Shown here piece after piece: positions 32,131-56,269 of a DNA stretch of 64,000 nucleotides. Position 1 is the first letter of the stretch. The number at the start of each line of letters is the position of its first letter. The stretch is taken from the NCBI RefSeq assembly GCF_021206925.1, contig NZ_JAJPRF010000011.1, forward strand, positions 1 through 64,000, in the 5' to 3' direction. This DNA comes from Rhodoflexus caldus (GTDB taxonomy: Bacteria > Bacteroidota > Bacteroidia > Cytophagales > Thermoflexibacteraceae). A model generated the notes under the pieces. The model was given only the letters and a program-made list of their open reading frames with translations. It was not told the origin of the DNA and did not search any database. The position numbers were made by a program, and so were the translations under genes.

Positions 32131-32162
32131 TTTGTTAGCATTTTTTAACATATCTATTTTTA
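32131..32162 (+). promoter_or_regulatory. Candidate promoter of the peptide-ABC cassette
   Basis: TTTG at 32131-32134, a 20-nt spacer and TATTTTTA at 32155-32162 closely match the Bacteroidota consensus (TTTG, 19-21 nt, TAnnTTTG), with one mismatch in the -7 element. The surrounding ~240 bp are very A+T-rich. A transcript would start close to the T tract that follows. Confidence 0.55.
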
Positions 32163-32176
32163 GGTTATTTAAGTCA

Positions 32177-32189
32177 TTTTTTTTTTTTT
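32177..32189 (+). repeat. Homopolymer tract of 13 T
   Basis: Thirteen consecutive T lie between the candidate promoter and the start codon of the small secreted peptide gene, inside the predicted 5' untranslated region, 25 bp before the ATG. Such tracts are prone to slippage. Confidence 0.8.
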
Positions 32190-32214
32190 GAGCTCAAGAA
32201 AATTTATCAACAAT

Positions 32215-32451
32215 ATGAGAAAAACAATTTTTGCCTTTTTATCAGCAGCTTCGCTAATGATGGCAACATGGTCTAATCAGTCTTATGCAAGACAAACAAA
32301 CCCGGGAGACGGCACTGTATTACCTGAAATCGTTGTATCTTGTGAATACAAAGGTTCACACACGTTTCAGATTAATTTTGACAATATGTCATACTCCGTT
32401 TGCTTTCAACTTTGGAAGTGTTCTTACGGATGGGACTTTAATTTCTGTTAA
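32215..32451 (+). CDS. Small secreted four-cysteine peptide
   Basis: A 78-residue precursor, start at ATG 32215 (MRKTIFAFLSAASLMMATWS). A classical signal peptide ends after SYA at about residue 25. The predicted mature part is about 53 residues, with cysteines at 43, 63, 69 and 78, the last being the C-terminal residue. The C-terminal third is unusually aromatic (CFQLWKCSYGWDFNFC). There is no lipobox and no similarity I recognise. Immediately downstream (97 bp) on the same strand are an ABC ATPase, two permeases and another membrane protein. By analogy with bacteriocin and RiPP loci the peptide may be a disulfide-bonded toxin or signal, but this is inference. The sequence is A+T-rich compared with the rest of the window. 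Confidence 0.65.
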   Translation: MRKTIFAFLSAASLMMATWSNQSYARQTNPGDGTVLPEIVVSCEYKGSHTFQINFDNMSYSVCFQLWKCSYGWDFNFC

Positions 32452-32548
32452 TCTGTTATGTTGATGTTGTAGAGAACATCCTTAATATATAGTGTTCTCT
32501 ACAATTTACGTGCGTTTATTTTGAAAATAATTTACAATTAGAGCTAAA

Positions 32549-33397
32549 ATGATAGCTATTGAAAAATTATCCCTTAGCAAAGGTAAAACTGTCATTCTAA
32601 AAAATATTGACTTATCTATTACACAAGGCGATGTTGTGCTATTAGCCGGACGAAACGGTGCAGGCAAAACCACACTGCTCAAATGTCTCTTGGGTATAGA
32701 AAAAAACTATACAGGTCGGATTGTTTTTCATACAGACAGTGGACGTTCTATCGGGTACGTGCCTGACTATCCGGCGCTATATGACCATCTGAGTGCCTAC
32801 GATAATTTAAATATCACCCGCCTGTACCATGGAAAACCATTAGCTGCTGTCAGCGAGCAATTGGCAAAAGCAGGATTAGCACAAGATGCACATACGAAAG
32901 TAAAGTATTTTTCCGCAGGGATGAAGAAAAAACTATCTATTGCTGCTGCGTTGATTTGCCGTCCTCAACTGCTCATATTAGACGAACCCACCAATGCGCT
33001 TGATCCTGAAGCGGTAATTGAACTGCGGGAGCATATCGCAAAGCTAAGCCGCGAAGAGAAAGTTACCTTCCTGATTGCCACACATTTGCTGGAAGAAATC
33101 AACAAAATTGCTACTCAATTAGTACTGCTTAAGAAAGGTGTTGTCGTTTTTAATGAACCCCGCAGTACCTACGGGCAATACAAAGTAATCAAAGGCACTG
33201 TTGCTGAGCATTTGAAAGACGGATTGAAAGATTTGCTTGCCTCACATCAGTTAAAAGCAAAATCAGACGACCATCTGACAGAAATTCTGTTGCCGCCAAC
33301 ACTCACAGACGAAGGACAACTCGGCAGCCTGCTTACCGATATAACCATACGCGATGCCTCCATAGAAGATTTATTCACTTTTAACCATGTGGGATAG
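32549..33397 (+). CDS. ABC transporter ATP-binding protein with degenerate Q-loop and signature
   Basis: A 282-residue ABC ATPase. Walker A is GRNGAGKTT (34-42), Walker B LLILDEPTNALD (141-152, Glu146) and the switch His is His179 (IATHLLEE). The Q-loop glutamine is replaced by Asp73 (IGYVPDYPALYDHL) and the signature LSGGQ is replaced by FSAGMKKKLS (121-130). Such substitutions recall lantibiotic self-immunity ATPases (LanF/BcrA group), where the Q is usually Glu. A non-conserved C-terminal domain of about 70 residues follows. The gene abuts the first permease (TAG followed directly by ATG) and belongs to the small-peptide cassette. Confidence 0.88.
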   Translation: MIAIEKLSLSKGKTVILKNIDLSITQGDVVLLAGRNGAGKTTLLKCLLGIEKNYTGRIVFHTDSGRSIGYVPDYPALYDHLSAYDNLNITRLYHGKPLAAVSEQLAKAGLAQDAHTKVKYFSAGMKKKLSIAAALICRPQLLILDEPTNALDPEAVIELREHIAKLSREEKVTFLIATHLLEEINKIATQLVLLKKGVVVFNEPRSTYGQYKVIKGTVAEHLKDGLKDLLASHQLKAKSDDHLTEILLPPTLTDEGQLGSLLTDITIRDASIEDLFTFNHVG

Positions 33398-34132
33398 ATG
33401 ATAGCGGCGCATTTGAAGAATTTTATCTACATAGAATGCCTAAAATTTTTTAGAACAAAAAACTTTGTAATTGCTGTTTTGCTGTTAGCAGTTTGTGCTT
33501 GCGTTATACTGATAGACTTTCATTTGAGAATCCATGAAAAATTTGCAAGGTATGTCTCGTTTAATAAGGATGCGGTCTTTGTTACTTACTATCTGAAAAA
33601 TCTGTCGCCCAAATTAGGAATCGTCAGCTACCTGCTCCCGACGATATTTACCCTTTTGATTTGGGAAGTAGAACACAAAGTACTGCCTGCACAGATTTTT
33701 TTCCGCTCCCTGCGCAATGCTGTCTTGCTGGTACTTGCCAAATTCAGCATAGTCATGAGCATGAGTGTGTTGTGGCTGGCGGCAGCCGGCATGGCTTACG
33801 GATGGCTGATACACAAAGCGTTTCCGGTTGATTATCCGCTAATAGAAAGCTATCGGTTAATGCTCCGATTTGGCATTCAGCAACTTTATTACAGTGGAAT
33901 GATTGCCCTGCTGTTTTTTGCCGTTTTGTCCCTGTTCAGAACAAATATGATAACAGGTTTGCTGATTATTGCTGCTTTTTATTTGATTGGTAGCTGGCTG
34001 GCTGTTTATCCGTTGGGGCAGTTGCTGCAAATGGATCTGAACCTTGCCCATTCTTACAGTTTATCCCCAGTGATAGATCTCACACTCGCAGGGCTGTTTT
34101 TCTTCATTACTGTTTACAAAGTCCGAAATTAA
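33398..34132 (+). CDS. ABC-2-type permease, first subunit
   Basis: A 244-residue integral membrane protein with about six hydrophobic segments (for example NFVIAVLLLAVCACVILI, LGIVSYLLPTIFTLLIW, MTGLLIIAAFYLIGSWL). It follows the ATPase without a gap and overlaps the second permease (TAATG). Its length and its pairing with a second, different permease resemble LanE/LanG-like subunits. The transported molecule may be the peptide encoded upstream, or a competing one. It is too divergent for a family name. Confidence 0.75.
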   Translation: MIAAHLKNFIYIECLKFFRTKNFVIAVLLLAVCACVILIDFHLRIHEKFARYVSFNKDAVFVTYYLKNLSPKLGIVSYLLPTIFTLLIWEVEHKVLPAQIFFRSLRNAVLLVLAKFSIVMSMSVLWLAAAGMAYGWLIHKAFPVDYPLIESYRLMLRFGIQQLYYSGMIALLFFAVLSLFRTNMITGLLIIAAFYLIGSWLAVYPLGQLLQMDLNLAHSYSLSPVIDLTLAGLFFFITVYKVRN

Positions 34133-34929
34133 TGACCAACTTCATACACGCAGAACTGATTAAACTCTTCAAAAACAGGTTGATTGTCTCCCTGATTGCC
34201 ATGCAAATTGTGCTGACTTTTTTTGCCACATGGCTTTTCAGTTACCTGAATCGTTCTGCAATAAGTTTTAGTCCTAAGACAGATTCACTTGCTTTTGTAG
34301 ATACCTTGCTCTGGATAGCATGGTTTTATATTTTCTTATTCTTTTCGCTTACTATTTTTATTGTTTGGCAGCAGGCTGAACACCGCAATCGCAGTCTGAT
34401 TCGCTATTACCTACTTCCTTATACTGCTGAGAGAGCGCTGTTAGGGCGTTTTTGGGTATTGTATGGTTGCCTGGCACTTGTATGGCTATTGCTTTGCAGT
34501 ATGAATTACTGGTGGGTAGAGCATCTGTTGTTTCAATGGGATACCCGCTACGATCTGTGGCTGCTGTCTTCGGAAAGAGTTGTATTCTTTTGGCGTGCCT
34601 TTTTGTGTATCCTTGTTTTACCTCTGCCGCTATATCTGTTATTCTACCAAATCAGCTTGCACTACGGCAGTTTGGCGGGTAATGCAATTATCGCACTTGC
34701 CCTGCTGATATTGAATGGCTTAGGGTCTTTTGACTGGTTCTTTTTATCTAATACGCTCAAAGCAGTGGGCATATCTTTGGATACATTGACCAGCACGGGT
34801 GAAAACTATGTCTACGACCTGAACGACCTGCTTGATATATTTTACCAAAATGCCATACTGGCTGTTTTGCTATTGTCTTTGGGTTGGTTAGGCTTACGTT
34901 ATTTTCCTGCATATGATACTCAGTCTTAG
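34132..34929 (+). CDS. ABC-2-type permease, second subunit
   Basis: A 265-residue membrane protein with about six hydrophobic segments and an extended extracytoplasmic stretch (RSAISFSPKTDSLAF) after the first helix. N-terminal MTNFIHAELIKLFKNRLIVS is typical of ABC-2 permeases, which begin with a cytoplasmic amphipathic helix. It overlaps the first permease by one base and the next gene by 17 bp, so translation of the cassette is probably coupled. It differs clearly from the first permease, implying a heteromeric channel. Confidence 0.75.
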   Translation: MTNFIHAELIKLFKNRLIVSLIAMQIVLTFFATWLFSYLNRSAISFSPKTDSLAFVDTLLWIAWFYIFLFFSLTIFIVWQQAEHRNRSLIRYYLLPYTAERALLGRFWVLYGCLALVWLLLCSMNYWWVEHLLFQWDTRYDLWLLSSERVVFFWRAFLCILVLPLPLYLLFYQISLHYGSLAGNAIIALALLILNGLGSFDWFFLSNTLKAVGISLDTLTSTGENYVYDLNDLLDIFYQNAILAVLLLSLGWLGLRYFPAYDTQS

Positions 34930-35473
34930 AAAACGCTTTTTGATAAGTGAGGGAATCCGAATTGGTTTCATGGCAGGCAGTTGTGTAGCGGTTGCAGACC
35001 TGCTGATTTATGGTTTTAGTATGTACGATGCCTATGATCTTCCGCTGTACTTTGGACTGATATTGATTCCCTATGTGCTGGTAGGGGTTTTGCTAATGGC
35101 TCTGATATCCCCCTTAGTTCGTACTCGTTTTTTACGTACTTTTGTTATCAGTTTTTCTGCCTACATAGTCGCATTTTTCATTATTGCATCCAATCTATTG
35201 TTGCTACATCATGTAATTGATACCGATTACAAAAACAGAATAGCGGCCGAAATTGCCAGACAATCGGTAGAAAAAGGGATTAAAATCAGGAAAAATGTTG
35301 TTGGTGAGCATCCGCCCTTGCACAATGAACAGAGCTTACAATCTTTGCGAACAGAAATTGTTAATCGCTATGAGTTAGTTACATTGATAGGTATCAATGT
35401 GGTGAATCTGATACCCATGCTGTTTTTTAGCCTGGCAGTGAGTTTGACAATTCGTCTGATGACGCGGTTGTAA
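34913..35473 (+). CDS. Four-helix membrane protein at the end of the peptide-ABC cassette
   Basis: A 186-residue membrane protein with hydrophobic segments near residues 15-35, 45-65, 75-98 and 155-182, and a charged soluble loop (about 105-150) between the third and fourth. The architecture is reminiscent of DUF4199 proteins, but the match is not strong enough to name it. It overlaps the second permease by 17 bp. As the last gene of the unit it could be an immunity or accessory subunit (inference). Confidence 0.6.
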   Translation: MILSLRKRFLISEGIRIGFMAGSCVAVADLLIYGFSMYDAYDLPLYFGLILIPYVLVGVLLMALISPLVRTRFLRTFVISFSAYIVAFFIIASNLLLLHHVIDTDYKNRIAAEIARQSVEKGIKIRKNVVGEHPPLHNEQSLQSLRTEIVNRYELVTLIGINVVNLIPMLFFSLAVSLTIRLMTRL

Positions 35474-37783: not shown

Positions 37784-38905
37784 ATGAAGACCTGTAAAGT
37801 TATCTTATTTTCGCTGTTGATGAGTGCTGCTGCCTTGCCAACTTTAGCGCAGGGCATTTCCGCACCTAAATACAGCAATGATTTTTTAAGTATTGGCGTG
37901 GGTGCGCGCGCCTTGGCAATGGGTGGTGCGCAGGCAGCAGTGGCGAACGATGTTACAGCTGCCTTTTGGAATCCTGCCGGCCTGTTGCATATCAAAAAGC
38001 CCTTTCAGGCATCGTTGATGCACTCTGAATATTTTGGCGGCGTAGCCAATTACGACTATGCAGGCATCGCCGCCAAGTTAGACGAAAGCGGCGCCATTGG
38101 TTTTTCCCTCATTCGCATGGGGATTGATAACATCCCCGACACACGCCTGCTCATTGCACCCGACGGCTCCGTGAACTATAACAACGTAGGCTCATTTGCC
38201 GATGCTTCGTATGCATTCCTGCTGTCCTATGCGCGGGAAAGTTCGCTGCTCAAAGGATTGAAGGGGGGAGCTAATCTCAAAATTATCCACCGCACGGCCG
38301 GTGCTTTTGCCAATGCGTGGGGCTTTGGGCTGGACGTGGGCGCGCAACTGCAACGGGGCAAATGGTGGTTTGGCGTTGCGGGCAGAGATATTACAAGCAC
38401 TTTCAACGTATGGAACTACAACTCGGAAAGCGTATTTGAAATTTTTTCGCAAACGGGCAACCAAATCCCGACCAATGCCATAGAATTGACCCTGCCGCGC
38501 ATTGTGGCAGATGCCGCCCGCGAAATTCCGTTGGGTGAAGATATGGGCGCAGTGCTTACGGCAGGCTTCACCTTTACTACCGATGGCAAGCGGAACACTT
38601 TGCTTCGCACCGATGTGATTTCTGCTGATATACAGGCAGGAATGGAATGGCACTACAAGCAAACGTTTTTCCTGCGCGGCGGCGTTAGCAATTTTCAGCG
38701 CCTGCAAAACTTTGATAAAAGCTACTATACGCAGATGCAGCCGAGCTTCGGGCTGGGTTTTCGCATCCTGAATTTTCAGATAGACTATGCGCTGGCAAAT
38801 GCCCTGCGTTCCGATGCAGTACTTTACTCACACGTATTCAGCCTGCGCGGCGACTTTGAAAAAGCAAAAACGGATAAACAAAAGACCAAAAAAACCAAGC
38901 GATGA
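37784..38905 (+). CDS. porV2: PorV/PorQ-family type IX secretion outer-membrane protein, PorV2-like
   Basis: A 373-residue exported beta-barrel. Signal peptide ends at TLA-QG. It has the PorV/PorQ family opening FLSIGVGARALAMGGAQAAV, then VTAAFWNPAGLLHI and HSEYFGGVANYDYAGIAAKL, as in FadL-type barrels of the type IX system. PorV carries secreted cargo to the PorU sortase on the cell surface. This copy sits directly before a very long sortase and overlaps it (38902-38905), so I read the two as the PorV2-PorU2 pair seen in Cytophagales. The name rests on context. The tail is Lys-rich. Confidence 0.75.
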   Translation: MKTCKVILFSLLMSAAALPTLAQGISAPKYSNDFLSIGVGARALAMGGAQAAVANDVTAAFWNPAGLLHIKKPFQASLMHSEYFGGVANYDYAGIAAKLDESGAIGFSLIRMGIDNIPDTRLLIAPDGSVNYNNVGSFADASYAFLLSYARESSLLKGLKGGANLKIIHRTAGAFANAWGFGLDVGAQLQRGKWWFGVAGRDITSTFNVWNYNSESVFEIFSQTGNQIPTNAIELTLPRIVADAAREIPLGEDMGAVLTAGFTFTTDGKRNTLLRTDVISADIQAGMEWHYKQTFFLRGGVSNFQRLQNFDKSYYTQMQPSFGLGFRILNFQIDYALANALRSDAVLYSHVFSLRGDFEKAKTDKQKTKKTKR

Positions 38906-41900
38906 AACGGCTTATTATGTGCTGCCTGTTATTGCTGACAGCATGGGCAGCCCACTCACAACGATTTGGCAATGAGTGGATTGACTATCAGCAAACCTAT
39001 TACAAAATCCCTGTTCGTGCAGAGGGGATTTATCGCATCCTGCCTGCCGACTTGCAAGCGGCGGGTTTATCAACTGCCACCATTGACCCCCGCAACATCC
39101 GCATGTTTTTCCGCGGAAGGGAAATTGCCATCAATGTGGTTGGTGAAAGCGACGGACGATTTGATGCGGCAGACTACATAGAGTTTTTTGGTCGGCCGGC
39201 AGGGTTAGACCTGATTTTGCCCATGTACGAAACCCCCGACCATGTAACCAACCTGTATGCGAACTTTTACGAAGGTACAGCCTACTATTTCCTGACTGTC
39301 GGCAATACTCGCGGCAAACGCATGGCCGTAGTGGCAGAGCGCAACAATAGCATCCCCGCCGAGACCTACCACATGCAGGAGATTATAGATTCCCGCAACG
39401 GTAACTTTGTGAACGGCGTGCTTTTCCCTACTACCATTATCAACAACAACGATGTCGGCGGACTTTTCTCGCATTTCAACGAAGGAAAAGGTTTGGTCGT
39501 GCTTAGTTTTCGCCCCTCCACTACTATTACCAATCGTACCTATGCCTTGCAGGACGTGGTGCAGCCACGCGGCGATTTGATAGTAAAACCCCGAGCCGTC
39601 ATACGCGTGGCCGGGCGCAACAATACCCTCCACGATGTGGATATGTTTTTAGGCACGACTGCTGCCAATCAAACTCGTGTGGCCAATGCCCGTTTCCAGA
39701 ATTATTCGGTAGTGGACTTGGTGGCCAATCTGGACTCAACTTTCCGCTTCCCTTCGCCTTCGGGCAATTTGCTGATGGGCTACCGTGTCAATCGGGTAGA
39801 GCGCGCCGATGAGGAAGTGGCTATCGGGCATTTTTACCTGACCTATCCGCAGGGCTTCAATTTGCAGGGCAGTACTTTCCGCAAGTTCAACCTGAACCCT
39901 AACACCAACGGTACTTCACGCATCGTGCTGACCAACGTACCTGCCAATACTCGCCTGTTAGACATTACCGACGAAGGCAACGTCAGCATCATGAACGGGG
40001 AAAGTGCAGGCGGCGGGCTTTCAGTAGTTGTGCCTAATACGCTGCGCGGTCGTGTGCTGTATGCAGATGCTCGCATTACGCGCCCTACGGGTATCACACG
40101 CATGAATTTCCGCCGTTTGCCGGTAGAAACCTCCGATTACCTGATTGTTTCCCATCCGATTGTGCGCCGTCCTTCGGGCAATATCCCCGACCCGGCACAG
40201 GCATATGCCAACTACCGCGCATCGGCCAAAGGGGGCAACTATCGCCCTTTGTTGGTCAATGTGGACGAACTTTTTGACCAGTTTACCGAAGGTGAACCCA
40301 ACCCGTTGGCCATTCGCCGCTTTGCTGATTATGCATTGGCAAATGGCAACCCCAAGTTTTTGTTCCTGTTGGGCAAAGGCTTACAGATTTCAGCTTTTCA
40401 CTACATGAACCCGGGTTCCATAGCTGCATGGACACAGATTCCGCCCTATGGCAGCCCCGGTTCGGACAATGAAATTACGGCAGGGCTGGCAGGTTTTCCC
40501 AAGCACGTACCTGCAATTCCTACCGGCCGACTGCCGGCATTTGACCCTTCGCATGTGGTGAATTACCTCAATAAGGTGATTGAGTATGAGGAATTTGCAT
40601 TTGACGATTTATGGAAAAAGAACGTGCTGCACCTCAGCGGCGGTTTTACGGCCTCGGAAAATGCCCTGTTCCGCGCTTATGTGGACGGCTTTGCGGAAGT
40701 AGCGCAAGGCGACTTTCTGGGGGCTAAGGTAGAAACCACTTCCAAGAAAACCACCGACTTTGTAGAGTTTATCAACATCCGCGACCAAGTAAACCGCGGG
40801 CTGGGGCTGATTACCTTCTATGGCCACGCCGCACTGGATTTTACCGATATTGATATCGGGCGGGTTTCCAACACTACGCTGGGCTATAACAACCGCCGCC
40901 GCTATCCGATGGTAATTGTGAACGGCTGCGGCTCGGGTGATGTTTTTCAATACAACATTTCATTGGCCGAAGACTGGCTGAATACTGCCCAACGCGGTGC
41001 GGTGATTTGGCTGGCACATGGACACTTAGGCTTTGCCGGGCCACTGCGTTCCTACACGCAAATTTTCTACGAAAACGTATTGGGCAAGCGCGAAAATATC
41101 AATCTGCCCATCGGCAAAGCCATGCAGAACTTCCTGACAGACTACCTGCAACGCTCACCGACCGATTTCAGCATTGCCAATGCACAGCAGTTTATTCTGG
41201 CGGGAGACCCTGCCCTGCATCTGTTCAGAGCACCGCAACCCGACTATGCCATCAGCAACGACAAAGTATTTATCAACGGATTCAACAATGCGCGGGTGAT
41301 TACGGCACAGGCAGACTCTTTCCGCATAGGTATGGTGGTTTCCAATTTCGGCATTACCGACCGCAACGAGCTGACCGTATCCATCCGCCGAACTTACTCC
41401 GATGGCTCGGTAGATATCCTGCCTGTGCGTGCCTTCAATCCGGTGCGCTATCAGGATACACTGTACTTCACCGTAGTCAATCCACGCAATTCGCAAAATC
41501 GCATTTTCGGCATGAATCGCTTTGAAATTACGGTAGATGCAGAAAACCGCGTGGCCGAACTGCGGGAAGACAATAATACCGCCATTTTCAATTTCTTCTT
41601 CCTGCGCGGTACGATGATTCCGCTTGCACCCAAGGAGTTCAGCATTGTCAGCCGACAGCCTGTGCCGTTTATTGCACAGAACTCCGACCCGTTCTCGGCA
41701 GAGCGCCGCTATCGTTTCCAGTTAGACACTTCTTACCTGTTCAACAGCAGCATCAGGCGCGATACCACCGTTTTCGGTTACATTACGGCACAATGGACAA
41801 CGGGGCTGCCCAACGTACCCGACAGTACGGTTTTCTACTGGCGCGTGCGCTATGCCGACCCGCGTGCCGATGAGGACACCACATGGGCGGAGTCCTCTTT

Positions 41901-43935
41901 TGTGTTCATTCGCAACAGCCCCGACGGTTGGTCGCAAAGCCGCCATCCGCAGTTCCGCAAAAATGAACAGCGTGCCATGCAGTTAGATTTGCAACGCCGC
42001 AAATGGAACTTTCAAGACCAAACACTCACCTTTACGGGAACGGCTTTTGGTAATGCCAATGCCAATGCGCTCAACTTTGCGCTCAATGTAAACGGACAAC
42101 CCCTGATTACCAACAGTTGCGCCCTGAATCAGCCCAGCCGTTTCTGCGTGCCGGGCGTGAGCATAGACCGTCTGCTCATTACTGCCATTGACGGACAAAC
42201 GGGACAGTTCTACCGACCAGATGCCGGCATGGATGCCTGCGGCTCGTCTTTGTTGGTGGCAGCCATTGACCAGTGCGAACTGGTTCGTGGCGATATATTG
42301 CAACAAACCTTTAATCGAGTCAAAGACGGCGACTATGTGATTGTGATGAACTCCCGCACCGTAGGTTTCAGCGGTTGGGGACAAGGCAACCTGAACGCCA
42401 TGGGCAGCATCGGTGTAAATGTGGCAACTTTCCGCACCCGCTACCCAAGCGGTGCACCCATGATTATCATCGGCAGAAAAGGAAGCCCGCAAGGCACGGC
42501 AATAGAGGCTTTTTCGGGTAACAACACCGGACAGGCTACCATTAACCATACCTTGCGCTTTACGCCCAACAACGGCACGATAACCTCCACACTGATAGGC
42601 CCTGCGGCAGAGTGGGGCAGCCTGTTCCGCCTGATTAACAATGCTGAAAATCCACAGCGCGAAAGCTGGCGATTGGATGTGTTCGGTATTGATTTTCAAG
42701 GAAATGAGCGTCAGGTGTTCAGCGATGTACGCCCCGATAACTTCTCCCTCCGCGACCTGAATCCGGCACAAATACCTTACCTGAGGCTGCGCCTGCAAGT
42801 AGTGGACAGTTTGAACCGCACACCCTATCAGTTGCAGCGCTGGCAGGTTATTTACAAAGAAGTCCCCGAAGGCATTTTGCTCTACGATACGCTTACTTAT
42901 CGGGAAAATACCACGCTCAACATCATAGAGGGCGATACGGCAAAAATCGGATTCTATTTCCTCAACATATCGGGCAACGATTTTGCGGACAGCCTGACGG
43001 TAGAATATCGCATTGAAAATACGCAGACAGGAGTTGCCTCCACGCGTCGTATGCGCATTGTTGCGCCCAAGCGCAATGAACAAACCTACTTCCGCGTGCC
43101 GATTAATTCGCTGGAATTTTTGGGTGAAAACCGCATGACCGTAACCGTCAATCCGCGCATACAGCCCGAGCAGGTCTATGAAAACAACGTGTTGCAGGTG
43201 CGCTTCCGAACCAAACCCGACGATATCAACCCCGTGCTGGATGTGGCCATAGACGGGCGGCAGATTATGGACGGGGAAATTGTTTCGCCCGAGCCGTTTA
43301 TTATCATCACGTTGAAAGATGAAAACAAACGACTCATCAAACGCGACACCAGCGGATGGGATATCCGCATAGGGTTAAATACACCCAACGCCGAGATGCG
43401 CCGGATTAACTTTAACGACCCCAACCTGAATTGGCGGGTGGATGCTTCGGGCAGATTCATTATTGAATATCGTTCTAACAAACTGCCCAACGGCAGCTAT
43501 CTGCTCACCGTACAGGCACGGGATGTTACGGGCAATCCTTCGGGCAGAGAACCTTACCGCATCACTTTCCGCGTCATCAACGAAACAACGGTAACAAATT
43601 TCTATCCTTATCCGAATCCGTTTTCTACCAATGTGCGCTTCGTATTCACCCTCACGGGCGAAATTCCCGAAGATATCCGCATTCAGATTATGACCGTTTC
43701 GGGCAAGGTAGTCAAAACTATTTTCAAGGATGACTTAGGGCCGCTGCAAATCGGCAATAATATCAGCCAGTATGCATGGGACGGTACCGACGAGTTCGGC
43801 GACCAGTTGGCACGTGGTGTGTACCTGTACAAGGTAGATGTGCGCAAAGCAGGCGGAGAGGATTTTGACCGCCGCCCGACTGCTGCCGACGACATGTTTA
43901 GGCAGGGCTACGGGAAATTGTACCTGATGAAGTAG
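38902..43935 (+). CDS. porU2: Type IX secretion C25-family sortase, PorU2-like
   Basis: A 1677-residue exported protein, longer than classical PorU (about 1150-1300). Signal peptide to about AAHS-QR. The gingipain-type (C25) catalytic domain lies around residues 430-770, with His642 in ITFYGHAALDF and Cys676 in VIVNGCGSGDVFQ. These are expected to form the transpeptidase pair that removes type IX signals and attaches cargo to lipopolysaccharide. Beta-sandwich and Ig-like segments follow. The last ~90 residues (NFYPYPNPFSTNVRF..., VSGKVVKTI, WDGTDEFGDQLARGVYLYKV) form a FlgD-like/type IX C-terminal domain. Overlaps porV2 by 4 bp. Its own substrates are not in the window, apart from the broken protease near 55 kb. 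Confidence 0.82.
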   Translation: MKRLIMCCLLLLTAWAAHSQRFGNEWIDYQQTYYKIPVRAEGIYRILPADLQAAGLSTATIDPRNIRMFFRGREIAINVVGESDGRFDAADYIEFFGRPAGLDLILPMYETPDHVTNLYANFYEGTAYYFLTVGNTRGKRMAVVAERNNSIPAETYHMQEIIDSRNGNFVNGVLFPTTIINNNDVGGLFSHFNEGKGLVVLSFRPSTTITNRTYALQDVVQPRGDLIVKPRAVIRVAGRNNTLHDVDMFLGTTAANQTRVANARFQNYSVVDLVANLDSTFRFPSPSGNLLMGYRVNRVERADEEVAIGHFYLTYPQGFNLQGSTFRKFNLNPNTNGTSRIVLTNVPANTRLLDITDEGNVSIMNGESAGGGLSVVVPNTLRGRVLYADARITRPTGITRMNFRRLPVETSDYLIVSHPIVRRPSGNIPDPAQAYANYRASAKGGNYRPLLVNVDELFDQFTEGEPNPLAIRRFADYALANGNPKFLFLLGKGLQISAFHYMNPGSIAAWTQIPPYGSPGSDNEITAGLAGFPKHVPAIPTGRLPAFDPSHVVNYLNKVIEYEEFAFDDLWKKNVLHLSGGFTASENALFRAYVDGFAEVAQGDFLGAKVETTSKKTTDFVEFINIRDQVNRGLGLITFYGHAALDFTDIDIGRVSNTTLGYNNRRRYPMVIVNGCGSGDVFQYNISLAEDWLNTAQRGAVIWLAHGHLGFAGPLRSYTQIFYENVLGKRENINLPIGKAMQNFLTDYLQRSPTDFSIANAQQFILAGDPALHLFRAPQPDYAISNDKVFINGFNNARVITAQADSFRIGMVVSNFGITDRNELTVSIRRTYSDGSVDILPVRAFNPVRYQDTLYFTVVNPRNSQNRIFGMNRFEITVDAENRVAELREDNNTAIFNFFFLRGTMIPLAPKEFSIVSRQPVPFIAQNSDPFSAERRYRFQLDTSYLFNSSIRRDTTVFGYITAQWTTGLPNVPDSTVFYWRVRYADPRADEDTTWAESSFVFIRNSPDGWSQSRHPQFRKNEQRAMQLDLQRRKWNFQDQTLTFTGTAFGNANANALNFALNVNGQPLITNSCALNQPSRFCVPGVSIDRLLITAIDGQTGQFYRPDAGMDACGSSLLVAAIDQCELVRGDILQQTFNRVKDGDYVIVMNSRTVGFSGWGQGNLNAMGSIGVNVATFRTRYPSGAPMIIIGRKGSPQGTAIEAFSGNNTGQATINHTLRFTPNNGTITSTLIGPAAEWGSLFRLINNAENPQRESWRLDVFGIDFQGNERQVFSDVRPDNFSLRDLNPAQIPYLRLRLQVVDSLNRTPYQLQRWQVIYKEVPEGILLYDTLTYRENTTLNIIEGDTAKIGFYFLNISGNDFADSLTVEYRIENTQTGVASTRRMRIVAPKRNEQTYFRVPINSLEFLGENRMTVTVNPRIQPEQVYENNVLQVRFRTKPDDINPVLDVAIDGRQIMDGEIVSPEPFIIITLKDENKRLIKRDTSGWDIRIGLNTPNAEMRRINFNDPNLNWRVDASGRFIIEYRSNKLPNGSYLLTVQARDVTGNPSGREPYRITFRVINETTVTNFYPYPNPFSTNVRFVFTLTGEIPEDIRIQIMTVSGKVVKTIFKDDLGPLQIGNNISQYAWDGTDEFGDQLARGVYLYKVDVRKAGGEDFDRRPTAADDMFRQGYGKLYLMK

Positions 43936-53936: not shown

Positions 53937-54623
53937 ATGAAACCCATCCGATTATCAATTGCGCTTTTAACTGCATGGATGCTTGCAATGGCACTGGGCA
54001 GTTGCAACAAATCAAACCCTGATCCGGTGCCTCCTGCCTGTCCACCCGACCCGAAACCCGTAGTTAAAACCGAAGGCCCTGTGCGATTTGAGTTTGGCGT
54101 AACCGACCTTGACGGAAATCCTAAAAACTGCTTCCGAAAAGGTGAACCTTTCCGCGTGTATCTCTATATCATTAATCAGGGAGAAACGCGGTTATGGTGG
54201 AATAATGCTGCACCTGAGTCTTATCTGACTCCTGAATTATTTATTGTAGATCAAGACGCCCCCCCCATTATCAAATGGAGTAATAGCGCCCAATGCAGAG
54301 GTCCATATGGACATGTAATAGCTGCTTTTGATTCATTGATTTTTGATACGCCGCGCTCCTTTGAGCTTCCATATTTACAATCTTTAGCACCTGTTCCATA
54401 TTTGGAATATCTCAAAAGGCGAAGATGTAGAGTCCCTGAGTGGAGAGTAATTGAAGGAAACTTAGAGAAGTTACCTGTGGGGCGCTATCGCATCAGACTG
54501 CGCATAGCATTATTACTGGGCGAACCTAAGCCTGGTTACTCACCTATACCCTCAGGTGATGAAAAACTACTGCCCCTCCAATCCTATGCCTTTGAAGGTG
54601 AGTTGCCGCTGGTGGTGCAATGA
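53937..54623 (+). CDS. Lipoprotein of unknown function
   Basis: A 228-residue lipoprotein. The signal peptide ends with the lipobox ALGSC (Cys23), and the short Pro-rich linker NKSNPDPVPPACPPDPKP suggests a surface or periplasmic tether. The mature part has beta-rich segments (VRFEFGVTDLDGNP, EPFRVYLYIINQGETRLWW) that look Ig-like, and it ends QSYAFEGELPLVVQ. It is separated from the protease by a perfect hairpin and is A+T-rich relative to the neighbours. I do not recognise a family. Confidence 0.75.
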   Translation: MKPIRLSIALLTAWMLAMALGSCNKSNPDPVPPACPPDPKPVVKTEGPVRFEFGVTDLDGNPKNCFRKGEPFRVYLYIINQGETRLWWNNAAPESYLTPELFIVDQDAPPIIKWSNSAQCRGPYGHVIAAFDSLIFDTPRSFELPYLQSLAPVPYLEYLKRRRCRVPEWRVIEGNLEKLPVGRYRIRLRIALLLGEPKPGYSPIPSGDEKLLPLQSYAFEGELPLVVQ

Positions 54624-54638
54624 GTTATATTTATTTTT

Positions 54639-54668
54639 CTCATGGAGCATTTGCGTATGCTCCATGAG
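54639..54668 (+). terminator. Hairpin between the lipoprotein and the protease gene
   Basis: Perfect 12-bp inverted repeat CTCATGGAGCAT / ATGCTCCATGAG (54639-54650, 54657-54668), 6-nt loop, followed by a weakly T-rich stretch. Confidence 0.7.
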
Positions 54669-54697
54669 TTATTGATTCACACAAACAAATAATCACA

Positions 54698-56269
54698 ATG
54701 AACAAAAAACAATTCTTTCTCTTGATTTTATTCTTTCTGACATTCAATGTAAATGCCCAGTACCATATACATTATTTCGGTAAGCCCATGCGAAAGGCTC
54801 CTGACAAGACCGATGTACCAACTTTTAACATGGCGTTTTTTGATGCAAAAAATATACTTGCTTCGGAAGAAGCAAATAATCGGCAAAAGTCAAAGCCAAC
54901 TTATCAATTTGGTAAGACCTTTGACGTATCAATAGACTTGCTCAAACAGCCGCAATGGAAACAAGAAGCTAAGGGAAGGGTTTTCCGCTATAGAATCAAA
55001 GCTGAGGGAGCAAAGTCAATTAGCTTTGCTTATAAGAAATTTTTCCTGGCTGAAAATGCATGGCTGAAAATATACACACCTGACAGCAGTATGGTGATGG
55101 GTCCGATTGCGGGTGGAATATTTAAGACACCTGATTCATTTGCTACCGATCTATTAATCGGAGATGAAAGTATTATTGAACTTTTTGAACCGGAGGGAGC
55201 CATTGGAACATCTGTCGTTCAGATAGAAAAAGTTACTTTAGGCTACCGCGATTATTTTGCTGCTGAACAGGAAGCAGCTATTAGCAATGGCCGAACAGAA
55301 ACAGCATTAGCCTGTCAGCGCAATGTCATTTGCGAAAGCAACTATACGAATGAATCTAATGCGGTAGCGTTATGCTTTTTTGGCGAAGATGGCTACACAG
55401 GACAACTGATTAATAACTCAGGAGTAATCTCTAACGCTAATTCACAAAGACCGTATTTCATAACTGCATTTCATAGTATTGAGCTCGCACCTGCTTTGAT
55501 TGCATCTTCTACTGTTTTCAGATTTAAGTACCGAAGTTCGCAATGCAATAATAATATAATACCGCCCCAAAGTTCATGGTTTGTGTGGTCTATGGGAGCA
55601 GATGTAAGGGCAATTCATGAAGCTACCGATGTCGCACTTTTGGAACTCAGAACAGGTTCTTTAGGCGTATTTGGGTTCAATCAGATGCTTGCCAATAATG
55701 GAATCTGGTACTTGGGATGGTCGCGTTACAACTGTGGTCTGAATACATCTGCCGCGCCGGTAGCATGTCTTCATCACCCAAGAGGGGATTTGATGAAAAT
55801 TTCGCTTTCCAGACTGCCTGTTACTACAAATCTTCCACCTACTTTTCAAATAGACCCTCCCTATAATCCTGTCAATTTTAATTTCGTAACCTTTAATAGT
55901 GGTAGCCCACAAACTATTGGTGCAGGCACTCAGCCTGGCTCTTCTGGTTCAGGCTTATTAGACCAAAATAAAAGACTTATAGGTGTATTAACAGGAGGAG
56001 CACCTGTGAACCCTTCTTGTAATAACCCAGACTACTCTTATTATGGTCGTTTTGATTTAGCCTGGGAAGGTGGTGGTACGCCAAATACACGCCTTAAGGA
56101 CTGGTTAGATCCGGGTAATTTGAATGTTATGACTCTTAACTCATCACCTGCTAACTCTACTACAACTGCCGGAAGTCCAAACTTTCCTGTAACTAATTTG
56201 ATAAGTGTTTCAGGAGCAGGTATGTCTGTATGTCAAAGCGGCTTAGGTTTAGGAGTTATATATGTATGA
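54698..56269 (+). CDS. Secreted trypsin-like serine protease, catalytic part (frameshifted from its C-terminus)
   Basis: 523 codons. The signal peptide ends at NA-QY. A propeptide-like region to about 200 precedes a chymotrypsin/lysyl-endopeptidase-type domain: CQRNVICESNYTNESNAV, His259 in YFITAFHSIEL, Asp311 in HEATDVALLEL and Ser416 in TQPGSSGSGLLD. Cysteines are placed as in lysyl endopeptidases. The frame ends abruptly in GLGLGVIYV-TGA at 56269. The next frame (56262-56804) continues with a beta domain and a type IX signal. Without that signal the enzyme could not be exported across the outer membrane, so this is one gene broken by a frameshift or an assembly error. Confidence 0.8.
   Translation: MNKKQFFLLILFFLTFNVNAQYHIHYFGKPMRKAPDKTDVPTFNMAFFDAKNILASEEANNRQKSKPTYQFGKTFDVSIDLLKQPQWKQEAKGRVFRYRIKAEGAKSISFAYKKFFLAENAWLKIYTPDSSMVMGPIAGGIFKTPDSFATDLLIGDESIIELFEPEGAIGTSVVQIEKVTLGYRDYFAAEQEAAISNGRTETALACQRNVICESNYTNESNAVALCFFGEDGYTGQLINNSGVISNANSQRPYFITAFHSIELAPALIASSTVFRFKYRSSQCNNNIIPPQSSWFVWSMGADVRAIHEATDVALLELRTGSLGVFGFNQMLANNGIWYLGWSRYNCGLNTSAAPVACLHHPRGDLMKISLSRLPVTTNLPPTFQIDPPYNPVNFNFVTFNSGSPQTIGAGTQPGSSGSGLLDQNKRLIGVLTGGAPVNPSCNNPDYSYYGRFDLAWEGGGTPNTRLKDWLDPGNLNVMTLNSSPANSTTTAGSPNFPVTNLISVSGAGMSVCQSGLGLGVIYV

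What the first reader, a model, noticed from the sequence alone, without database searches (positions are those of the whole stretch)
32131..35473. A+T-rich cassette: small secreted four-cysteine peptide with a two-permease ABC transporter and an extra membrane protein
A promoter-like pair, a T tract, a 78-residue precursor (signal peptide, Cys43/63/69/78, the last at the very C-terminus) and four tightly packed membrane/ATPase genes lie on one strand, with overlaps or zero gaps between the last four. The layout ATPase + two unlike permeases is that of lantibiotic-type self-immunity transporters (LanFEG), but the peptide has a Sec signal and no known leader, and no modification enzyme is near. 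It could be a disulfide-bonded antimicrobial or signalling peptide with its own exporter or immunity pump. The composition differs from the flanks, which suggests acquisition.
Basis: partly seen in the sequence, partly recalled or inferred. Interest (0 to 1): 0.8.

Follow-up and report, generated by a model that had tools for sequence, protein, structure and literature searches.

The report
Patchy two-permease transporter beside orphan peptide
A rare four-gene membrane transporter, built like pumps that protect bacteria from antimicrobial peptides, sits next to a gene for a small secreted peptide with no known relatives, but the few related copies give no sign that the two belong together.

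Summary
In detail: a 78-codon secreted four-cysteine peptide gene, then an ATPase, two unlike six-helix permeases and a DUF4199-like membrane protein, A+T-rich, on one strand. The last four genes are a real, rare module: a homologous set lies at another place in another genus of the family, without a peptide gene. No credible relative of the peptide was found in the genomes, plasmids, phages and viral contigs searched, and a 97-base gap with a 14-pair stem separates it from the ATPase. In one same-genus species the flanking genes are neighbours with no cassette. In the closest species transposon ends sit at two contig breaks here; peptide, ATPase, permease A and the start of permease B are missing, and the DUF4199-like gene is broken. 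Best reading: a dispensable, patchily distributed ABC-2 efflux or immunity-type transporter of LanFEG/CprABC-like layout (not a demonstrable LanFEG member) beside an orphan peptide gene that may or may not concern it. The peptide looks like a true folded product: its single-sequence model is a confident three-stranded sheet that could bring the four cysteines into two pairs. Peptide immunity stays possible but unproven. Interest modest.

The parts
32131..32162 (+). promoter-like pair TTTG - N20 - TATTTTTA upstream of the peptide gene
   Evidence: sequence and spacing; Bacteroidota consensus recalled; not tested
32177..32189 (+). run of 13 T between promoter-like pair and peptide start; the alignment to the sister genome G003 ends within it (32182)
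32215..32451 (+). 78-codon orphan gene: Sec-type signal peptide, 53-residue acidic mature part, four Cys, last residue Cys
   Evidence: model (mean pLDDT 85.2, pTM 0.49, strands at mature 18-30, 33-44, 47-52)
32466..32505 (+). 14-pair stem-loop between peptide and ATPase genes, terminator-like in place but without a clean T run
   Evidence: not listed by the terminator scan
32549..33397 (+). ABC ATPase; Walker A, signature, Walker B and H motif present; D73 at the Q-loop position
   Evidence: Pfam ABC_tran 5.1e-29; NCBIfam best TIGR03740 156 bits, cut-off 309.75
33398..34132 (+). permease A, six hydrophobic segments, no family match
   Evidence: homologue in G004 at 6.2e-10
34132..34929 (+). 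permease B, six hydrophobic segments, weak ABC2_membrane_4
   Evidence: E 0.0022, 18.5 bits, cut-off 27; homologues G003 and G004
34913..35473 (+). DUF4199-like protein, four hydrophobic segments
   Evidence: (E 0.0013, 19.6 bits, cut-off 32.3); homologues in G003 and G004

Best explanation
The functional unit is a four-gene ABC-2 transporter (ATPase, permeases A and B as a heteromeric pore, DUF4199-like accessory) that most likely pushes a membrane-active or lipophilic compound off or out of the inner membrane at the cost of ATP, in the manner of LanFEG/CprABC immunity and resistance pumps. It probably came into this lineage as a block between the deaminase and metallo-hydrolase genes, is dispensable, and is being lost in the sister species. 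The small four-cysteine peptide gene just upstream is a separate, lineage-restricted secreted product; it already has a Sec signal, so it needs no inner-membrane exporter, and its link to the pump is unproven. Shown: gene content, one homologous module without peptide in another genus, flanking genes adjacent without cassette in G001, the remnant in the sister. Inferred: substrate, direction of transport, acquisition rather than loss in G001, deletion by the transposon, the role of the accessory protein.
For: Homologous DUF4199-like/ATPase/permease A/permease B set in G004, another genus, beside argC and a MerR-like gene (names read from sequence), with no peptide ORF before it. A DUF4199 match is found independently in both sets (19.6 and 19.5 bits, both under the cut-off). 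In G001 the two flanking genes are neighbours, with 217 bases between the aligned stretches and no cassette. G003 keeps permease B from about residue 40 on (87% identity) and a DUF4199-like gene with an in-frame stop and a frameshift. dN/dS in G000-G003 is 0.26 for permease B and 0.35 for the DUF4199-like gene against 0.06 and 0.05 for the two flanking genes compared, so they are constrained but much more weakly. Peptide orphan. Gap and stem.
Against: Only one peptide-free homologous cassette is known, and its ATPase and DUF4199-like genes are frameshifted as assembled (decay or assembly error), so it may have lost a peptide gene. In G003 the peptide is missing together with ATPase and permease A, which does not separate them. 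Small peptides evolve fast and can escape searches at 28% permease identity. No substrate is known. The permease B model is poor (pLDDT 44.5), so the fold is not confirmed.
Confidence: 0.52

Rival explanations
1. Peptide and pump are one system: the Sec-exported, disulfide-bonded peptide is a bacteriocin or toxin-like product released to the periplasm and beyond, and the ABC-2 pump clears it from the producer's inner membrane (self-immunity, as LanFEG does).
For: Adjacency and same strand; LanF-like ATPase is the best NCBIfam match; a confident single-sequence three-strand model, whose strand registers would set Cys43 near Cys69 and Cys63 near Cys78 (pairing inferred, not measured); the permeases are absent from 10 of the 12 other family genomes, and the missing stretch of G003 takes peptide and pump together.
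Against: Homologous module without peptide; 97-base gap with stem; mature peptide is acidic (3 K+R, 5 D+E), unlike cationic membrane-active peptides; no credible peptide relative in what was searched.
Confidence: 0.25
2. The pump is a general exporter of a lipid, antibiotic or other small compound, and the peptide gene is a chance neighbour with an unrelated role such as a secreted inhibitor or signalling peptide.
For: The ATPase scores 156 to 119 bits with lantibiotic, modulin, daunorubicin, PQQ-linked and haem exporter families alike, and its best PDB sequence matches are lipid transporters of the ABCA kind; the peptide is not found with the other pump copies.
Against: The two-permease plus separate ATPase layout and the best NCBIfam match point to the peptide-immunity branch, though far under cut-off.
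Confidence: 0.18
3. The 78-codon frame is not a gene but a chance ORF in an A+T-rich stretch.
For: No homologue, so no conservation test possible; 60 of 5000 simulated stretches give an ORF as long.
Against: Signal-peptide-like start, A-rich leader, promoter-like pair, low chance rate, and a mature part that folds with mean pLDDT 85 from one sequence (no shuffled control was folded).
Confidence: 0.05

Closest known systems
LanFEG lantibiotic self-immunity ABC transporters (NisFEG)
   Same: one ATPase gene and two unlike six-helix permease genes in a row; ATPase matches TIGR03740 best; description of NisFEG from passages of PMC5786555
   Different: score half the TIGR03740 cut-off; permeases match no NCBIfam family; no lantibiotic biosynthesis genes among the flanking proteins scanned; Gram-negative Cytophagales; extra DUF4199-like gene
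CprABC-type peptide resistance transporters
   Same: ATPase plus six-helix permeases outside a biosynthetic cluster, closely related to LanFEG (passages of PMC5786555)
   Different: no two-component system among the flanking proteins scanned; extra DUF4199-like gene
Pmt phenol-soluble-modulin exporter
   Same: PmtC is the second-best NCBIfam match of the ATPase (138.7 bits)
   Different: cut-off 375 not reached; Pmt has two ATPases (PmtA and PmtC models; otherwise recalled); the peptide here has a Sec-type signal
DUF4199 (PF13858)
   Same: both cassette copies tested hold a protein with a weak DUF4199 match
   Different: both below the gathering score of 32.3; one paper in the held library mentions DUF4199 (listing only)

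Membership tests
LanFEG | LanF-type ATPase at or above the curated TIGR03740 cut-off | tested here: not met
   156 bits, cut-off 309.75
LanFEG | two permeases of about six transmembrane helices each | tested here: met
   six hydrophobic segments each by a hydropathy script; fold not confirmed
LanFEG | permeases match LanE/LanG families | tested here: not met
   no NCBIfam match at E <= 1 for either permease; permease B weak ABC2_membrane_4 only
LanFEG | E in place of Q at the Q-loop (recalled; the term does not occur in the main text of PMC5786555) | tested here: not met
   D73 in the window; N at the same place in G004
LanFEG | located in a lantibiotic cluster with modification enzymes | tested here: not met
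   none among 12 flanking proteins scanned with Pfam, 2 of them without any match; the rest of the window was not scanned
CprABC-type resistance operon | adjacent two-component system | tested here: not met
   direct neighbours are a deaminase and a metallo-hydrolase; no kinase or regulator among the 12 flanking proteins scanned
DUF4199 (PF13858) | score at or above the gathering score | tested here: not met
   19.6 bits, cut-off 32.3; homologue in G004 19.5
Sec-secreted disulfide-bonded bacteriocin | two disulfides and killing activity with cognate immunity | not testable with these tools
   four Cys and a signal-peptide-like start only
Sec-secreted disulfide-bonded bacteriocin | peptide conserved beside homologous immunity genes | tested here: inconclusive
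   G004 cassette has none before it; in G003 the stretch is missing; only these two other copies were found, and both are damaged as assembled

The most novel reading that the evidence does not exclude
A Cytophagales self-immunity system of a new kind: a Sec-secreted, non-lanthionine, disulfide-stapled three-strand peptide with its own LanFEG-like pump and a DUF4199-like partner, gained and lost as one cassette.
Probability: 0.13. Interest if true: 0.62.

Novelty: new variant of a known kind. Interest (0 to 1): 0.27.

Why it matters
If the pump guards against the neighbouring peptide, it would be a peptide-immunity transporter for a ribosomally made, unmodified, Sec-exported peptide in Bacteroidota, where few such systems are described (recalled; one search listed 6 papers for one set of words, and none of the titles names one). 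Even without the peptide, the repeated link of DUF4199-like proteins to an ABC-2 transporter gives a handle on a domain of unknown function.

Tried and rejected
Peptide relatives: one search covered 59 genomes, the own one included; 14 of the other 58 have a hit at E <= 1, best 0.068; these were not inspected one by one. One search covered 395 phylum genomes, the own one included; two others have a hit, E 0.0040 and 0.0047. Both were inspected: one covers 28 residues inside a frame of 1184 residues, the other overlaps a 326-aa ORF on the same strand in another frame and holds a stop; both rejected. Plasmids, phages and viral contigs: no relative. The degenerate motif pattern for LPEIVVSC occurs once in 13 family genomes, in the window itself.

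Permeases: permease B in 3 of 59 genomes (own, G003, and a weak hit with a stop in G031 that was not inspected); the scan of genome contigs gave 28 pattern matches and 1 relative, the G003 contig; its profile hit 8 other genomes of 395, the best of which, inspected, looks like a TatC (name read from sequence), the other 7 not inspected. Permease A: 1 of 12 family genomes, 2 of 390 with the own; its profile hit one other of 395, 58 positions with four stops, rejected. Plasmids: none for either; viral contigs: none for permease A.

PADLOC and PHROGs gave nothing for the peptide, the permeases and the DUF4199-like protein (the ATPase was not given). Rfam gave two sub-threshold matches. Foldseek and VIA-align with the peptide model gave no significant match (best E 0.67 in PDB, 0.21 in BFVD, best Z 3.6); the strongest rows by Z are mostly ribosomal-protein sheets, taken as common geometry. 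The permease B model was too poor to search. In one search a third flanking gene was out of register (15 codons) and was dropped, so the dN/dS control is two genes. The paper search was badly worded and useless.
Full report
WHAT IS THERE. The five frames are at the places named. The peptide gene 32215-32451 encodes 78 residues with Cys at 43, 63, 69 and 78. The ATPase, permease A, permease B and a fourth membrane protein follow one another with spacings of 0, -1 and -17 bases. Between peptide and ATPase lie 97 bases that hold a 14-pair stem, which the terminator scan does not list. The genes are A+T-rich: GC3 is 0.34 to 0.47 against a mean of 0.547 over 37 long ORFs of the window, three of the five included in that mean. 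Another stretch, 53937-56269, is as A+T-rich, so low GC alone does not single out this block.

THE PROTEINS. The ATPase is an ordinary ABC ATPase (Pfam ABC_tran 5.1e-29). Its best NCBIfam match is TIGR03740, the lantibiotic protection ATPase, with 156 bits against a cut-off of 309.75; PmtC and DrrA follow. At the Q-loop position it has D73 where the ABCA proteins shown have Q. Permease A matches nothing in Pfam or NCBIfam. Permease B matches ABC2_membrane_4 weakly. Both have six hydrophobic segments. The fourth protein has four and a weak DUF4199 match (19.6 bits, cut-off 32.3). The peptide matches nothing in Pfam, NCBIfam, PADLOC, PHROGs or PDB sequences.

RELATED LOCI. Permease A was found in 1 of the 12 other same-genus and same-family genomes and in 2 of 390 genomes of the order, the own genome included; the other genome is G004, another genus of the family. 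There the contig holds, on one strand, a DUF4199-like gene, the ATPase, permease A and permease B, beside argC and a MerR-like gene (names read from sequence), with the ATPase and the DUF4199-like gene frameshifted as assembled. Protein identities to the window are 45% over 156 residues (ATPase), 28% (permease A) and 27% (permease B); the DUF4199-like protein aligns over 101 residues at 22%, and scores against DUF4199 on its own with 19.5 bits. A scan for short frames with a signal-like start and two or more Cys gave three rows in that contig, two distinct frames, both downstream of the module and antisense to the MerR-like gene and argC; none precedes the module. The contig ends about 900 bases before the module. 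So the unit seen twice is the four-gene set, in two gene orders, and not the peptide.

THE SITE. In G001 (same genus) the deaminase and metallo-hydrolase genes that flank the cassette are adjacent, with 217 bases between the aligned parts and no cassette. G002 has no deaminase at E <= 1e-30 and other genes beside the hydrolase. G003, the closest (flanking DNA 87-94% identical), is a MAG titled uncultured Cytophagales. Two of its contigs end at this site: the alignment of one stops at window position 32182, inside the T run, that of the other starts at 34274, inside permease B. Both contig ends carry the same 15-base sequence, in inverted orientation with respect to the window, and the pieces beyond read like the start and end of a transposase of the IS5 kind (the kind is recalled, no family search of it succeeded). 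Searches of G003 for the peptide (E <= 1), permease A (E <= 1) and the whole cassette as DNA (E <= 0.001) found nothing else of it. The simplest reading is a transposon with an adjacent deletion that took peptide, ATPase, permease A and about the first 40 residues of permease B. The gap is not closed, so unassembled sequence remains possible. The rest of permease B is open and 87% identical; the DUF4199-like gene has an in-frame stop and a frameshift near its end. dN/dS is 0.26 (215 codons) and 0.35 (168 codons) for these two against 0.06 and 0.05 for the two flanking genes. The cassette is therefore older than the split of the two species (inference from its shared site), was constrained, and is dispensable.

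THE PEPTIDE. It was sought in 59 genomes of the own and near groups, 395 genomes across the phylum (both counts include the own genome), plasmids, phages and viral contigs: no credible relative. Of the weak hits only the two were inspected. Yet it is unlikely to be noise: a frame this long arose in 60 of 5000 simulated stretches, and it starts like a signal peptide. A model from the single mature sequence has mean pLDDT 85.2 and pTM 0.49, with pLDDT of 90 or more for 33 of 53 residues and strands at 18-30, 33-44 and 47-52. With tight turns these registers would put mature Cys18 near Cys44 and Cys38 near Cys53 (Cys43-Cys69 and Cys63-Cys78 of the precursor); this is my inference from strand limits, not a measured distance, and no shuffled control was folded. 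The mature part is acidic (3 K+R, 5 D+E) and rich in aromatic residues (10 of 53).

HOW IT PROBABLY WORKS. An ATPase with two unlike permeases of the ABC-2 kind would form one pore and move an amphipathic or lipophilic compound from the inner membrane. LanFEG and CprABC transporters act so against lantibiotics (passages of PMC5786555). In a Gram-negative cell a peptide with its own Sec signal needs no such pump to cross the inner membrane, so an exporter role for this peptide is unlikely; an immunity role is possible. Because the module exists without the peptide in G004, I rate the pump as an independent efflux or immunity-type unit (0.52) above a peptide-immunity pair (0.25).

NOVELTY. The transporter kind is known. 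The combination with a DUF4199-like protein and the very narrow distribution are new to me; one paper in the held library mentions DUF4199 (listing only). I call it a new variant of a known kind with modest interest.

Noticed in passing
window 32177-32189: Run of 13 T, the only A or T run of 9 or more in the window, between the promoter-like pair and the peptide start; it could vary in length and tune expression.
   Followed up: partly
L030/L059 1-170 and L025/L060 1-140 (G003): Both contig ends at the cassette site carry ends of an IS5-like transposon (kind recalled), marking an eroded remnant of the cassette.
   Followed up: partly
window 38902-43935: 1677-residue protein with a gingipain-type Peptidase_C25 domain and a C-terminal FlgD_ig match, preceded at 37784 by a 373-aa protein without Pfam match: resembles the PorU/PorV pair of the type IX secretion system (recalled).
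   Followed up: partly
window 53937-56269: Second A+T-rich stretch (GC3 0.39 and 0.32): a 228-aa protein without family and a 523-aa protein with a sub-threshold trypsin-like domain.
   Followed up: partly
L033 4628-5182: A full DUF4199 gene (43.3 bits, above cut-off) lies divergently next to the G004 cassette, beside the cassette's own weak DUF4199-like gene.
   Followed up: partly
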